Of a DNA stretch of 48,181 nucleotides, positions 5,447 through 17,243 are shown piece after piece. The position numbers and the translations under genes were made by a program. The stretch spans positions 1-48,181 of the forward strand of contig CAMDHJ010000010.1 in NCBI GenBank assembly GCA_945897865.1, in the 5' to 3' direction. How positions within the stretch are numbered: position 1 is the stretch's first letter; each line of letters opens with the position of its first letter. Below the pieces are notes generated by a model. That model was not told where the DNA came from. It searched no databases and saw nothing but the letters and a program-made list of their open reading frames with translations. The stretch is from Tepidiphilus sp. J10. GTDB taxonomy: Bacteria; Pseudomonadota; Gammaproteobacteria; Burkholderiales; Thiobacillaceae.

Positions 5447-8400
5447 GTGCCAATCAACCACACAAAGATCGCCATCGTTGGCATGGCGTTCCGCTTTCCG
5501 GGTGACCTGAGCACCGAAGACGCGTTCTGGCAAGTCCTCAAGCAAGGACGCGATGTCGTCAGCCAGATTGGTGAAGACCGCTGGGCCACGGACGTATTGT
5601 CGCACCCCAAGCGTTCCGAACCGGGCCGCAGCATTTCATTTGCAGCCGGTGTTTTATCGCGGCTGGATGCGTTTGATGCCTCTTTCTTCGGCATTTCGCC
5701 GCGTGAAGCTGGACGCCTGGACCCGCAGCAACGTCTGTTGCTGGAACTTGCCTGGGAAGCCATGGAGAACGGCGGCATAGCGCCGTCACGCCTGGCTGGC
5801 AGCGATTGTGCGGTCTACGTCGGCATCTCCGGTTTGGATTACGGCATGCGCGCTTTGGATGACATGAGCAGCATGGACGCCTACTCCATGACCGGCAACA
5901 CCCTCAGCATTGCCGCCAACCGCTTGTCTTATGTATTCAACCTGCACGGCCCGAGCATGGCGGTGGATACCGCCTGTTCCTCCTCTTTGGTGGCCTTGCA
6001 TCAGGCCTGCCGCAGCTTGCGCGATGGCGAGTCTTCCGTCGCGCTGGTCGGTGGCGTGAATCTGCTGCTGCACCCCTATCCTTTTGTCGGCTTCACCAAG
6101 GCATCAATGCTTTCCGCCGGCGGACGATGTAAGCCATTCGATGCGTCTGGCGACGGCTATGTCCGTTCGGAAGGTGGCGCAGTCCTGTTGCTGAAGCCAT
6201 TGGCTCAGGCAGAAGCCGATGGCGATGATATCCAGGCCGTGATTCTGGCGAGTGGTTCCAATTCCGATGGCGGCCGCAAGAGCGGCATCACCATTCCCAG
6301 CGTCGATGGACAATCCGAATTGTTGCGTCTGGTGATGCGGCAAGCTGGAATCACCGCCGCCGATCTCGATTATGTTGAAGCGCATGGCACCGGCACGGCG
6401 GTCGGTGACCCAATCGAAACCGCCGCCATCGGCCAGGTCATCGGCCAGGCGCGCGAAGCGGGCAAACCCTTGCTGGTCGGCTCGGTGAAAAGCAACCTGG
6501 GCCATCTCGAACCGGCATCCGGCATGGCTGGACTGATCAAGACCGTGCTGGCGTTGAAACACCGCAGCCTGCCGCCCTCGATTCACGTTGATACGCTGAA
6601 TCCGAACATCGACTTTTCCGGCCTCAACCTGGAAGTCGTGACGGCTTACCGCGAACTGCCCGCTTCTGCCAAACCCCTTTGCATGGGCGTCAATTCATTT
6701 GGTTTTGGCGGTGCCAACGCGCACGTTGTGTTGCAGGAACACCGTGGCAACACGATCAAGCGCCGTGCCAAAAAGCCATCGACCGCGCCTGCCTTGATTC
6801 TCTCCGCGCGTGCGCCTGAAGCCTTGCTTGAATTGGCGCGTCAATACGGCGAGCGCTTGAGTGCTGCGAATCCACCCGATTCCCATGATTTTGCCTACGC
6901 CGCCGCATATCGTCGGCAATGGCTGGAAAATCGGCTGGCGGTTTTCGGCCGTGATGCCAAGCAGATCACAGAACGTCTTGCCGCTTATGCGCGTGGCGAA
7001 GCCAAACAGGGTGTGGTCGAGGAAACAGCACTTGTCGATGCGGGCAAGACCGCATTTGTTTATACCGGCAACGGTGCCCAATGGTTGGGCATGGGACGGG
7101 CTTTGCTGGATGAATCACCTGCATTCGCCAAACTGTTGTCTGAACTGGATGACCTGATCCGGCAGCACAACGGGATTTCAATTCTGGCTGAACTACGGGC
7201 AGAACCCGATCAGTCTCGCCTGGAACTCACCGAAGTTGCACAACCCGCGCTGTTTGCGCTGCAAGTTGCGGTCACCAGCCTGTTGCGCGCGCAAGGCCTC
7301 GACGCGGCAGCCGCCTGCGGCCATAGCGTGGGCGAAGTCGCCGCCGCCTGGGCGGTCGGCGCGCTCAGTTTGAAGCAGGCGGTACGGGTGATCTGCGAAC
7401 GAAGCGGCGCCCAATCGGTGGCCAAGGGCAGCGGTCGCATGGCGGCTGTAGGATTGTCGGAGGAAGCGGCCGAACTCGCCGTGCAGGAGGCTGGACTCGC
7501 GGACAGCATCGTGGTTGCCGCCATCAACAGTCCCGACGCGGTGACGCTATCCGGCAGCTTTGTTGCGCTGGAGAGATTGAATGCGCGGCTGAATGCACCA
7601 CCCAGCGCACAACCCAGCGCACAGCCCAATACACAACCCGGCACACAATCGAGCCACCAGAAGGTTTTCTATCGACTGCTCGAGCTGGATTACGCTTTCC
7701 ATAGCCCGGCGATGGACCCGATTCAAGCCAGCGTGCTGAGCCGTTTGGATGATCTGGCGCCACAAACAGGCAATCGCATATTTGTCTCCAGCGTGACCGG
7801 TGGCGTGCTGTCCGGCAAGCAACTGAACGCGCATTACTGGTGGCGCAACATCCGCGAACCCGTGCGCTTCAAGCAAGCCATCGACGCGCTGGCATCGGTT
7901 GGTTGTCGCGTTTTTGTTGAAATCGGCCCACATGCCCTGTTGCAACGCTATATCAAGGATGCGTTGTCACAACTGGGTATTGCTGGCCGCGTCCTCGCCA
8001 CGCTCAAGAAAGGCGACGACGGCCACGATCGCTTGCTTGAAACCGCCTGGCGGGCCTGCTTGCTGGGCGCGCCGTTCAAGCTTGAAAAGCATTTCTCCAA
8101 GCCCGCCAGCATCGTCCGCCTGCCGACCTACCCCTGGCAACGTGAGCGCCATTGGCATACACAGACCAGCGCGGGTTATGACCTGATCAGTCGCAAGCGG
8201 GTGCATCCCCTGCTCGGCTATCGCCTGAAGGATGGCGATGCCAGTTGGGAGAATCCGCTCGATCCGCTGGTGCTGCCCTATCTGGCTGATCATCAGGTTG
8301 GTGGTGCTGTGGTACTGCCTGGTGCGGCTTATGTCGAAATGGCGCTGGCCGCCTCACGCGAATGGTTTGGCCATGATCGCCACGAGATGGAAGAAATGGA

Positions 8401-16476: not shown

Positions 16477-17243
16477 ATCATTCACCCAGCATGCGACATG
16501 TCATGATCACCGGCGCCAGTGGCGCCATCGGCCGCGCACTGGCGCTGGTTTATGCCGCGCCGGGGGTTCTGCTCAGCCTGACGGCGCGCGACGTTGACCG
16601 CCTGGCGGAAACCGCCGCACTTTGCAAGCAACTGGGGGCGGAGGTCGTCAGCGCGGCAATCGACGTCAAAGCGACGGCGACGCTGACGCAGTGGATTGAA
16701 ACAAGGGATCAGCAGCAGCCGGTTGATCTGATCATTGCCAATGCCGGCATCACCAGCAGTATCGGCAACGATGGTCAAGCCGAGCCCTGGCATCAGGTTG
16801 AACAAGTGTTCCAGGTCAATTTGATCGCTGCTGTCGCCAGCATTCATCCGCTGACGATACGCATGGCGGCGAGAGGCCGGGGGCAGATCGCATTGATGAG
16901 TTCACTCGGCGCGTATGTCGGCATGCCGATTTCACCCGCCTATAACGCCAGCAAAGCGGCAGTGAAAATTTACGGAGAAGGCTTGCGTGGCTGTATGGCA
17001 CCGCAAGGCGTCGGGGTCAGCGTGATCTGTCCCGGTTTCATCGCCTCCAACATGAGCAAGGCATACCCCGGCCCAACGCCATTCCTGCTGTCAGCCGACA
17101 AAGCGGCAGCCATCATCCGCAACGGCCTGGCCCGTAACCGCGCGATCATCGCCTTCCCCTGGCCGCTCACGCTCAGCATGCGCTTTCTGGCTTTGCTGCC
17201 AACCGACTGGAGTCTGGCGCTACAACGTCTGTTCAAATTCTGA
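16473..17243 (+). CDS. Short-chain dehydrogenase/reductase, RkpH-like
   Basis: 256 residues, starting at an ATGA overlap with kpsS. Classical SDR features are present: MITGASGAIGRALA (TGxxxGxG cofactor motif) near residue 11, NAGI, the catalytic Ser143/144, and Y157-x3-K161 in YNASK. The C-terminus (residues about 225-256) is hydrophobic and may associate with the membrane. It is the last gene of the + strand cluster. By analogy with 3-ketosphinganine reductase and Fum13, it probably reduces the ketone made by the oxoamine synthase to an alcohol. The fold is certain; the substrate is inferred. Confidence 0.85.
   Translation: MNHSPSMRHVMITGASGAIGRALALVYAAPGVLLSLTARDVDRLAETAALCKQLGAEVVSAAIDVKATATLTQWIETRDQQQPVDLIIANAGITSSIGNDGQAEPWHQVEQVFQVNLIAAVASIHPLTIRMAARGRGQIALMSSLGAYVGMPISPAYNASKAAVKIYGEGLRGCMAPQGVGVSVICPGFIASNMSKAYPGPTPFLLSADKAAAIIRNGLARNRAIIAFPWPLTLSMRFLALLPTDWSLALQRLFKF

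What the first reader, a model, noticed from the sequence alone, without database searches (positions are those of the whole stretch)
5447..17243. PKS / oxoamine synthase / GNAT / KpsS / SDR operon may build a sphingoid- or ceramide-like capsule anchor
Seen: a fully reducing PKS without thioesterase, then a PLP alpha-oxoamine synthase, a GNAT acyltransferase, KpsS and an SDR, packed with 4-37-base overlaps, and KpsC just upstream. Established: reducing PKS + oxoamine synthase + SDR is the Fum1/Fum8/Fum13 logic that yields sphinganine analogues; the rhizobial rkp-1 region (RkpA, G, H, J) has the same types for K-antigen; Caulobacter ceramide synthase is a GNAT enzyme. Inference: the chain is released by condensation with an amino acid, the ketone is reduced, the amine acylated, and the product is glycosylated with Kdo by KpsS/KpsC. 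If so, the capsule is anchored by a polyketide-derived amino-alcohol lipid instead of lyso-phosphatidylglycerol.
Basis: partly seen in the sequence, partly recalled or inferred. Interest (0 to 1): 0.87.

Follow-up and report, generated by a model that had tools for sequence, protein, structure and literature searches.

The report
Sphingolipid-type capsule anchor operon
A bacterial operon seems to build a sphingolipid-like lipid on a polyketide synthase and hand it to the enzyme that starts the sugar capsule, which would mean that many capsules are held by a different lipid from the textbook one.

Summary
The anatomy is confirmed: fully reducing one-module PKS without thioesterase, alpha-oxoamine synthase (AOS), GNAT, KpsS, SDR, with KpsC upstream. 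KpsMTED lies on another contig of the draft genome. The block is of a known kind, rkp-1 / wcb / sga. There, P. fluorescens SgaA-SgaB makes sphinganines, SgaB with serine (PMC12134224); that paper's text does not mention capsules.

New here: PKS-AOS pairs have capsule or Kdo genes nearby in 41 of 49 loci with 8 kb downstream. AOS and KpsS co-occur across genomes. KpsS, the enzyme that meets the lipid, splits by AOS presence (one branch, 100/100, 24 loci); KpsC from the same loci does not (AU p 8e-62). This favours a sphingoid lipid as KpsS acceptor.

Many relatives carry a phosphoglycerol-transferase-like protein, so their acceptor may mimic lyso-PG; the window lineage lacks it. A phospholipid anchor reported for S. 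meliloti 1021 (title only) either contradicts this or fits that headgroup. No lipid was measured.

The parts
1998..3026 (+). putative glycosyltransferase-like capsule protein, overlaps KpsC by 4 bases (342 aa)
   Evidence: No Pfam or NCBIfam hit; homologues in the capsule stretches of G042 (44%) and of an E. coli isolate (31%). The function is inferred.
3023..5131 (+). KpsC-type dual-domain Kdo transferase (702 aa)
   Evidence: Two PF05159 stretches, 306 bits.
5447..13195 (+). iterative fully reducing type I PKS, KS-AT-DH-(MT-like)-ER-KR-ACP, no TE (2582 aa)
   Evidence: Pfam; motifs and alignment with 15 relatives. Iterative use is inferred from the single module.
13206..14573 (+). PLP alpha-oxoamine synthase of the SgaB/RkpG kind (455 aa)
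   Evidence: PF00155; below every NCBIfam equivalog cut-off; in one clade with Pseudomonas PKS-linked AOS and RkpG, 100/98; H198, D271, H274, K306 and R430 align with SPT and KBL (roles recalled).
14570..15235 (+). GNAT acyltransferase, candidate N-capping enzyme (221 aa)
   Evidence: PF00583; nearest PDB 2qec (E 9e-13) and puromycin N-acetyltransferase 7k09 (E 7e-11); found in 5 of 61 family genomes, all five with the AOS.
15199..16476 (+). KpsS of the AOS-associated clade, puts the first Kdo on the lipid (425 aa)
   Evidence: PF05159 257 bits; KpsS trees. The enzymatic step is recalled.
16473..17243 (+). SDR, candidate 3-ketosphinganine reductase (256 aa)
   Evidence: PF00106; 41% identical to the SDR of a Pseudomonas sga-type cluster; SDR adjoins KpsS in 16 of 80 loci.

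Best explanation
The operon makes the lipid on which an ABC-transporter-type capsule is built. (1) The one-module PKS works iteratively with malonyl-CoA and makes a saturated acyl chain that stays on its ACP. (2) The AOS condenses the acyl-ACP with an amino acid, most likely serine, releasing CO2 and a 3-ketosphinganine. (3) The SDR reduces it to sphinganine. (4) The GNAT caps the free amine, more likely with a short acyl group than with a long fatty acid. (5) KpsS of a separate clade adds the first Kdo to this sphingoid lipid; KpsC adds more Kdo; the capsule glycan is built on top and exported by KpsMTED, coded elsewhere in the genome. In many relatives a phosphoglycerol-transferase-like protein may first add phosphoglycerol, making a sphingoid analogue of lyso-PG; the window lineage has lost or replaced that step. 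Shown by sequence: gene content, motifs, orthology, co-occurrence, KpsS/KpsC contrast. Shown in the literature for a relative: steps 1-2, with serine. Inferred: steps 3-5 and the anchor role.
For: Anatomy and motifs. The AOS lies in one clade with Pseudomonas PKS-linked AOS; PfSgaB has SPT activity, almost exclusively with serine, and sgaA or sgaB deletion abolishes C24-C28 sphinganines (PMC12134224 sections 7, 8 and passages). Biotin BioF exists twice elsewhere, beside BioB. Capsule or Kdo genes in 55 of 80 PKS-AOS loci, and in 41 of 49 with 8 kb or more downstream. Co-occurrence: class sample, KpsS in 7 of 9 AOS+ and 10 of 360 AOS- genomes; family sample, 5 of 6 and 1 of 55 (Fisher p 4e-9 and 6e-6, genomes not independent). 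KpsS tree of 54 rows: a 100/99 branch parts 39 AOS+ rows from 11 AOS- rows, also in three genomes where KpsS is on another contig or 28 kb from the AOS (G392, G031, G423). Paired test on 24 loci: KpsS 1 change (100/100), KpsC 5 changes, AU p 8e-62 against one clade. KpsMTED in the same draft genome: G000:C9.
Against: No lipid or capsule was measured. S. meliloti 1021 is reported with poly-Kdo on a phospholipid anchor (Fraysse 2005; I saw only the title in reference lists and a one-line mention) although rkp-1 is needed to secrete that poly-Kdo; the rkp-1 genes I examined are those of strain Ak57. Sphinganines occur free in P. fluorescens, with no capsule role described. Two of 9 AOS+ class genomes (G366, G349) and G049 show no KpsS. 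G374 has the AOS-type KpsS with SDR and LTA-like genes but no AOS hit at E 1e-90. Phosphoglycerol transferases of the LtaS/GacH kind act outside the cytoplasm (recalled), whereas KpsS acts inside. P0004 scores slightly better to BioF and Kbl than to SPT models, so serine rests on orthology alone. KpsS and AOS are often neighbours, so part of the KpsS signal may be co-transfer.
Confidence: 0.68

Rival explanations
1. The PKS-AOS lipid is a free sphinganine-type secondary metabolite or membrane lipid (as reported in P. fluorescens MYb115) and the capsule genes are only neighbours; the capsule anchor is ordinary lyso-PG.
For: MYb115 accumulates free sphinganines and PG-sphingolipids with a role in nematode protection (PMC12134224). 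8 of 49 long-flank loci have no capsule or Kdo gene nearby, though five of these eight hold UDP-sugar dehydrogenase and epimerase genes. G366, G349 and G049 have the AOS without a KpsS hit.
Against: 41 of 49 long-flank loci do have capsule or Kdo genes. KpsS divides by AOS presence and KpsC does not. SDR adjoins KpsS in 16 of 80 loci, and the 11 AOS-lacking KpsS stretches show no SDR or LTA-like homologue. rkp-1 mutants are described as K-antigen-deficient (PMC4881576 passages).
Confidence: 0.16
2. The lipid is needed for the capsule but as an export or assembly cofactor ('specific lipid carrier' of the rkp-1 literature), not as the covalent anchor, which stays phosphatidylglycerol.
For: Review text says rkp-1 products make and modify a specific lipid carrier for secretion (PMC4881576 passages). 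A phospholipid anchor is reported for S. meliloti 1021 (titles and a mention only).
Against: It does not explain why KpsS, the enzyme that meets the acceptor lipid, is the one that tracks the AOS while KpsC does not. A phosphoglycerol-sphinganine would itself be a phospholipid, and RkpI is phosphoglycerol-transferase-like.
Confidence: 0.11
3. A sphingoid anchor with a long N-acyl chain, that is, a true ceramide made by the GNAT acting like Caulobacter ceramide synthase.
For: A GNAT homologous to the window's directly follows the AOS in four other family genomes; Paraburkholderia dioscoreae also has a GNAT after the AOS. The Caulobacter precedent is recalled.
Against: Nearest solved relatives are acetyltransferases. 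Other lineages hold a formyltransferase-like protein (10 of 80 loci, 9 of them next to the AOS; PF00551 tested in one) or a CAT-like protein (3 of 80; PF00198 tested in two). PG-sphingolipids of MYb115 weigh sphinganine plus 154 Da, which leaves no room for an N-acyl chain, although clusters of its relatives hold a GNAT. No comparison with the Caulobacter enzyme could be made.
Confidence: 0.15
4. The AOS uses alanine or glycine, giving a 1-deoxy amino ketone, so the product is not a sphinganine.
For: P0004 scores better to BioF (345 bits) and Kbl (298 bits) models than to SPT models (284, 261 bits).
Against: Orthologous clade with Pseudomonas PKS-linked AOS; PfSgaB prefers serine almost exclusively over alanine and glycine (PMC12134224 section 8). 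A 1-deoxy product would lack the hydroxyl that a headgroup or Kdo needs.
Confidence: 0.07

Closest known systems
SgaA-SgaB-SgaC sphinganine cluster, Pseudomonas fluorescens MYb115 (PMC12134224)
   Same: One-module PKS + AOS + KDSR-like SDR. I did not have the MYb115 sequences; AOS of other Pseudomonas share the window's clade. Their clusters (P. kielensis L102, a Pseudomonas plasmid L161) hold PKS-AOS facing PhyH-KpsC-GNAT-LTA-like-SDR-KpsS, and the tags given in the paper (sgaB RS19800, sgaC RS19775) fit that spacing.
   Different: Window has GNAT between AOS and KpsS, no PhyH and no LTA-like gene; the paper's text does not mention capsules (0 hits for 'capsul').
rkp-1 region of Sinorhizobium meliloti (rkpU-A-G-H-I-J; strain Ak57 examined; gene names recalled)
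   Same: PKS (36% identical), AOS (51%), SDR (31%), KpsS (47%); KpsS in the same sub-clade as the window's (9 rows, 100/99).
   Different: Has RkpI, a PF00884 protein nearest to phosphoglycerol transferase GacH, where the window has a GNAT and no such gene.
wcb-type capsule clusters of Burkholderia kin (Paraburkholderia dioscoreae L172, Caballeronia insecticola L171)
   Same: P. dioscoreae: KpsS-SDR-LTA-like-PKS-LpxC-like-AOS-GNAT, with a GNAT after the AOS; Caballeronia: SDR-LTA-like-PKS-LpxC-like-AOS, then export protein, ABC permease, ATPase and chain-length protein. That this is the wcbO-T order is recalled.
   Different: Window lacks the LTA-like and LpxC-like genes.
E. coli group 2 capsule priming (KpsS, KpsC on phosphatidylglycerol)
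   Same: KpsS, KpsC and KpsMTED present; Kdo priming on a lipid (PMC11041684 passages).
   Different: The E. coli record has only AOS matches of 35% or less (up to 210 bits); its KpsS lies on the other side of the 100/99 branch.
Fungal Fum1/Fum8/Fum13 (fumonisin)
   Same: Reducing PKS + oxoamine synthase + ketoreductase logic (recalled).
   Different: Remote: the fungal sphA structure scores 85 bits against P0004, bacterial KBL and SPT 207-212 bits; Fum proteins themselves were not compared.

Membership tests
rkp-1 / wcb / sga PKS-AOS module | one-module reducing PKS directly beside an AOS of the SgaB/RkpG clade | tested here: met
rkp-1 / wcb / sga PKS-AOS module | SDR (RkpH/SgaC type) in the cluster | tested here: met
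   16473-17243; 41% to a Pseudomonas sga-type SDR, 31% to RkpH
rkp-1 / wcb module | RkpJ-type KpsS | tested here: met
   47% identical; same sub-clade
rkp-1 / wcb module | RkpI-type PF00884 phosphoglycerol-transferase-like protein in the cluster | tested here: not met
   none in the operon; two different queries of this kind found none in G000 (the second found G053 as positive control). A more distant LtaS-like PF00884 protein lies on C31. The draft is 86% complete.
rkp-1 / wcb module | capsule lost when the lipid genes are lost | not testable with these tools
   needs mutants
SPT / sphinganine synthesis (SgaB) | serine-specific condensation with acyl thioester | not testable with these tools
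   orthology only; curated SPT cut-offs not reached
Canonical bacterial ceramide pathway (SPT-bCerS-CerR) | SPT over curated cut-off | tested here: not met
   NF047599 261 of 500 bits, NF047603 195 of 670, NF047600 284 of 640
Canonical bacterial ceramide pathway (SPT-bCerS-CerR) | GNAT homologous to Caulobacter ceramide synthase | not tested
BioF (biotin) | TIGR00858 over cut-off, beside bio genes | tested here: not met
   344.6 of 426.45 bits; two BioF over the cut-off beside BioB elsewhere in G000
ABC-transporter-dependent (group 2/3 type) capsule | KpsS, KpsC and KpsMTED in the genome | tested here: met
   KpsS, KpsC in the window; KpsM 54%, KpsT 63%, KpsE 69%, export protein 75% to relatives on G000:C9; a different contig of a draft with 4.67% contamination

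The most novel reading that the evidence does not exclude
There are two classes of ABC-exported capsules, told apart by KpsS: the classical class primed on lyso-PG and a widespread second class (Pseudomonas, Burkholderia kin, rhizobia, Thiothrix, Bordetella and others; by PKS-AOS beside the exporter also nitrifiers) primed on a PKS-made sphingoid lipid, either phosphoglycerol-sphinganine (a lyso-PG mimic) or N-capped sphinganine. The sga, rkp-1 and wcb lipid genes, studied apart so far, are one anchor pathway, and the 'PG-sphingolipids' of P. fluorescens are its capsule-primer intermediates.
Probability: 0.53. Interest if true: 0.87.

Novelty: new variant of a known kind. Interest (0 to 1): 0.74.

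Why it matters
What lipid the rkp-1 and wcb genes make has been open since the 1990s (recalled), and the sphinganine-making sga genes were reported in 2025 without a capsule link. The KpsS/KpsC contrast joins the two and makes the question testable with one mass spectrum or one enzyme assay. If true, many bacteria not known to make sphingolipids carry one as the foot of their capsule, and the view that such capsules stand on phosphatidylglycerol needs a second class. My paper searches on the link (an open-licence library, listings seen) showed no paper that proposes it.

Tried and rejected
Rejected: (1) 'The module is separable from KpsS because G044 lacks KpsS', my early reading. It was an ORF-picking artefact; G044 has KpsS between GNAT and SDR. 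(2) BioF role for the AOS. (3) Active C-methylation in the window PKS: motif I is degenerate there; it is not so in every relative (L044). (4) Orthology of the window GNAT with the Pseudomonas GNAT: 25-29% over a poor alignment, so perhaps independent recruits. (5) G053 as a genome with KpsS far from the AOS: its KpsS contig begins with the last 38 residues of an AOS, so the two are linked and I do not count it.

Neighbours were named by BLAST to family representatives, of which only some were run against Pfam or NCBIfam. The KpsS cut of 250 bits in the family survey was set after seeing the list; G001 at 178.6 bits was not counted. The AOS cut of 514 bits in the class survey was also set after seeing the list; with the three lower AOS genomes (G064, G152, G257, all without KpsS) it is 7 of 12. 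In the KpsS tree I set aside as ambiguous, before building it, L166, L181, L167 and L169. L181 (G374) is AOS-negative and falls on the AOS+ side, so by AOS status alone it is one exception. L166 is on a 135 kb plasmid without AOS (rest of the genome not seen) and also falls on the AOS+ side. L165 was on the same list but gave no KpsS row. Two class genomes with a KpsS hit, G218 and G237 (63 bits), are not in the tree. The paired test uses 24 loci that have both a KpsS and a KpsC of at least 560 aa. KpsS with SDR is 16 of 25 and 17 of 25 (L088 is hidden by ORF picking in the former). Structure prediction of the GNAT was never run. The paper of 1997 on rkpGHIJ is not held, and other original rkp and wcb papers were not read.
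Full report
WHAT IS THERE. The window is one contig (C10) of a 3.89 Mb draft genome in 247 contigs, 86% complete, 4.67% contaminated. Reading frames and families confirm the finding: a glycosyltransferase-like protein 1998-3026, KpsC 3023-5131, PKS 5447-13195, AOS 13206-14573, GNAT 14570-15235, KpsS 15199-16476, SDR 16473-17243. PKS and AOS are 10 bases apart; the other junctions overlap by 4, 37 and 4 bases. 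The next two genes downstream run the other way (no Pfam hit at 17304-18413, NnrS at 18433-19632). The PKS has intact KS, AT, DH, ER, KR and ACP motifs, a malonyl-type AT motif (recalled) and an MT-like domain whose motif I is degenerate in the window, and no thioesterase. The AOS keeps the residues that align with the PLP lysine, histidines and carboxylate arginine of SPT and KBL (the roles are recalled).

IT IS THE rkp-1 / wcb / sga KIND. A PKS lies directly upstream of the AOS in 76 of 80; of the others, L083 has an LpxC-like gene between, L094 is hidden by ORF picking, L077 is a short contig, and L103 has AOS, KpsS and SDR but no PKS in reach. In S. meliloti Ak57 pSymB the same set is PKS-AOS-SDR-(RkpI)-KpsS with KpsF convergent (rkp names recalled). 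In Paraburkholderia dioscoreae it is KpsS-SDR-LTA-like-PKS-LpxC-like-AOS-GNAT. In a Pseudomonas plasmid it is PKS-AOS facing PhyH-KpsC-GNAT-LTA-like-SDR-KpsS-KpsC-phosphotransferase, then KpsF and KdsB. A tree of 55 AOS proteins puts window, Pseudomonas, Nitrosomonas, RkpG and Paraburkholderia in one clade (100/98), apart from BioF and an ACP-linked SPT-like protein (long outer branches, bootstrap not fully settled). That Nitrosomonas and Burkholderia share wcb/rkp PKS genes is in print (PMC3908369 passages).

THE BIOCHEMICAL PRECEDENT. Peters et al. 2025 (PMC12134224; I read the abstract, sections 7, 8 and 15 and search passages) deleted sgaA and sgaB in P. fluorescens MYb115 and lost C24-C28 sphinganines; purified SgaB condensed C16-CoA with serine, hardly with alanine or glycine; an SDR, SgaC, was proposed as ketosphinganine reductase; lipids of sphinganine plus 154 Da were assigned as PG-sphingolipids. 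The word stem 'capsul' does not occur in the main text. The tags printed there put SgaC (RS19775) five genes from SgaB (RS19800), which is the position of the SDR in the Pseudomonas plasmid cluster and in P. kielensis: PhyH, KpsC, GNAT, LTA-like, SDR. I could not fetch MYb115 itself, so that its cluster holds KpsC and KpsS is an inference.

LINK TO THE CAPSULE. In 55 of 80 loci a capsule or Kdo gene lies in the fetched stretch, in 41 of 49 where at least 8 kb downstream were held. KpsS is present in 25 of 80, SDR adjoins KpsS in 16, and SDR adjoins the LTA-like gene in 16. In a class-wide draw of 369 genomes, KpsS was found in 7 of 9 genomes with a close AOS and in 10 of 360 without; with three more distant AOS genomes counted it is 7 of 12 and 10 of 357. 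In the window's family (61 genomes) it is 5 of 6 and 1 of 55. Fisher p values are 4e-9, 8e-8 and 6e-6, without correction for kinship and with cut-offs chosen after seeing the lists. The own genome has KpsM, KpsT, KpsE and an export protein together on contig C9.

THE DISCRIMINATING TEST. If the PKS lipid is the acceptor of KpsS, KpsS should differ between genomes with and without the lipid genes, and KpsC, which extends Kdo (recalled), need not. The KpsS tree of 54 rows has a 100/99 branch with 39 AOS+ rows on one side and 11 AOS- rows (including E. coli, K. oxytoca and G045 of the window's own family) on the other. The E. coli record has only BioF/Kbl-level AOS matches; for K. oxytoca only the plasmid could be searched. 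Of four rows set aside beforehand, the two with SDR and LTA-like genes beside KpsS (L166, L181) fall on the AOS+ side and the two with classical surroundings (L167, L169) on the other; L181 has no AOS hit and is an exception by AOS status alone. KpsS of G392 and G031 (another contig than the AOS) and of G423 (28 kb away) still falls on the AOS+ side, so linkage alone does not explain it. On the same 24 loci, KpsS needs one change (support 100/100), KpsC needs five, and holding the AOS+ KpsC together is rejected (log-likelihood 198 lower, AU p 8e-62). In the larger KpsC tree of 34 rows, KpsC of G042 (AOS+) and G045 (AOS-) are sisters at 100/97. The 11 AOS- KpsS stretches show no SDR or LTA-like homologue.

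HEADGROUP AND N-CAP. The LTA-like neighbours (PF00884; 19 of 80 loci) are, for the one searched, nearest to lipoteichoic acid primase and phosphoglycerol transferase GacH (E 4e-11, 2e-10). RkpI is a distant member (28% over 435 residues, E 3e-42; GacH E 4e-9). Such an enzyme could turn sphinganine into phosphoglycerol-sphinganine, a single-chain lipid that resembles lyso-PG, and would explain both the PG-sphingolipids of MYb115 and a 'phospholipid anchor' in S. meliloti 1021 (title and a mention only). The difficulty is topology: known members work outside the cytoplasm (recalled), KpsS inside. In the window's family G053 has the LTA-like gene and no GNAT, while G000, G044, G031, G042 and G049 have the GNAT and no LTA-like gene, so here the N-cap or another enzyme may take its place; an LtaS-like protein lies on C31. 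Beside the AOS lies a GNAT here, a formyltransferase-like protein in Thiothrix and others (10 of 80 loci hold one, 9 next to the AOS) and a CAT-like protein in three. These are unrelated folds that could all acylate an amine, which fits a free-amine product of the AOS and argues for a short cap.

VERDICT. The block is a new variant (GNAT present, RkpI-type protein absent) of a known kind; the joining of sga, rkp-1 and wcb into one anchor pathway appeared in none of my search listings, which cover open-licence papers only.

Noticed in passing
window 1-1284: Cytochrome d1 haem-domain protein near the contig start (PF02239), with NnrS at 18433-19632: a denitrification setting on both sides of the capsule operon.
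   Followed up: no
window 17304-18413 (-): 369-aa protein without Pfam or NCBIfam hit, convergent with the SDR.
   Followed up: partly
window 29935-38269: Sensor kinase with CusS domain and response regulator facing outer-membrane efflux, HlyD-type and AcrB-type genes: looks like a metal efflux cluster.
   Followed up: no
window 26316-28831: Multihaem cytochrome c protein with MtrC-like stretch followed by a cytochrome b561.
   Followed up: no
G000:C30 and G000:C39 (L210, L211): Two BioB-BioF pairs in one draft genome; either two copies or a sign of strain mixture.
   Followed up: no
L174 (Planktothrix plasmid), L209 (Streptomyces plasmid): AOS of this family at the C-terminus of one large open reading frame: in L174 a type I PKS, in L209 a 4.8 kb frame annotated only as aminotransferase.
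   Followed up: partly
L043, L049, L056, L083, L171, L172: An LpxC-type deacetylase (PF03331 in the two tested) lies among the PKS-AOS genes; with a GNAT in L083 and L172 it suggests an N-acetyl group that is put on and taken off.
   Followed up: partly
L011/L019 (G015), L012/L020 (G038): Same-genus genomes without a PF05159 hit carry another AOS (52% identical) beside an SDR-like frame.
   Followed up: no
L076, L084, L087, L098 (Bordetella, Achromobacter): A KdsA-like gene (DAHP synthetase I family, PF00793 in the two tested) lies next to the AOS, with KpsC and KpsS close by.
   Followed up: no
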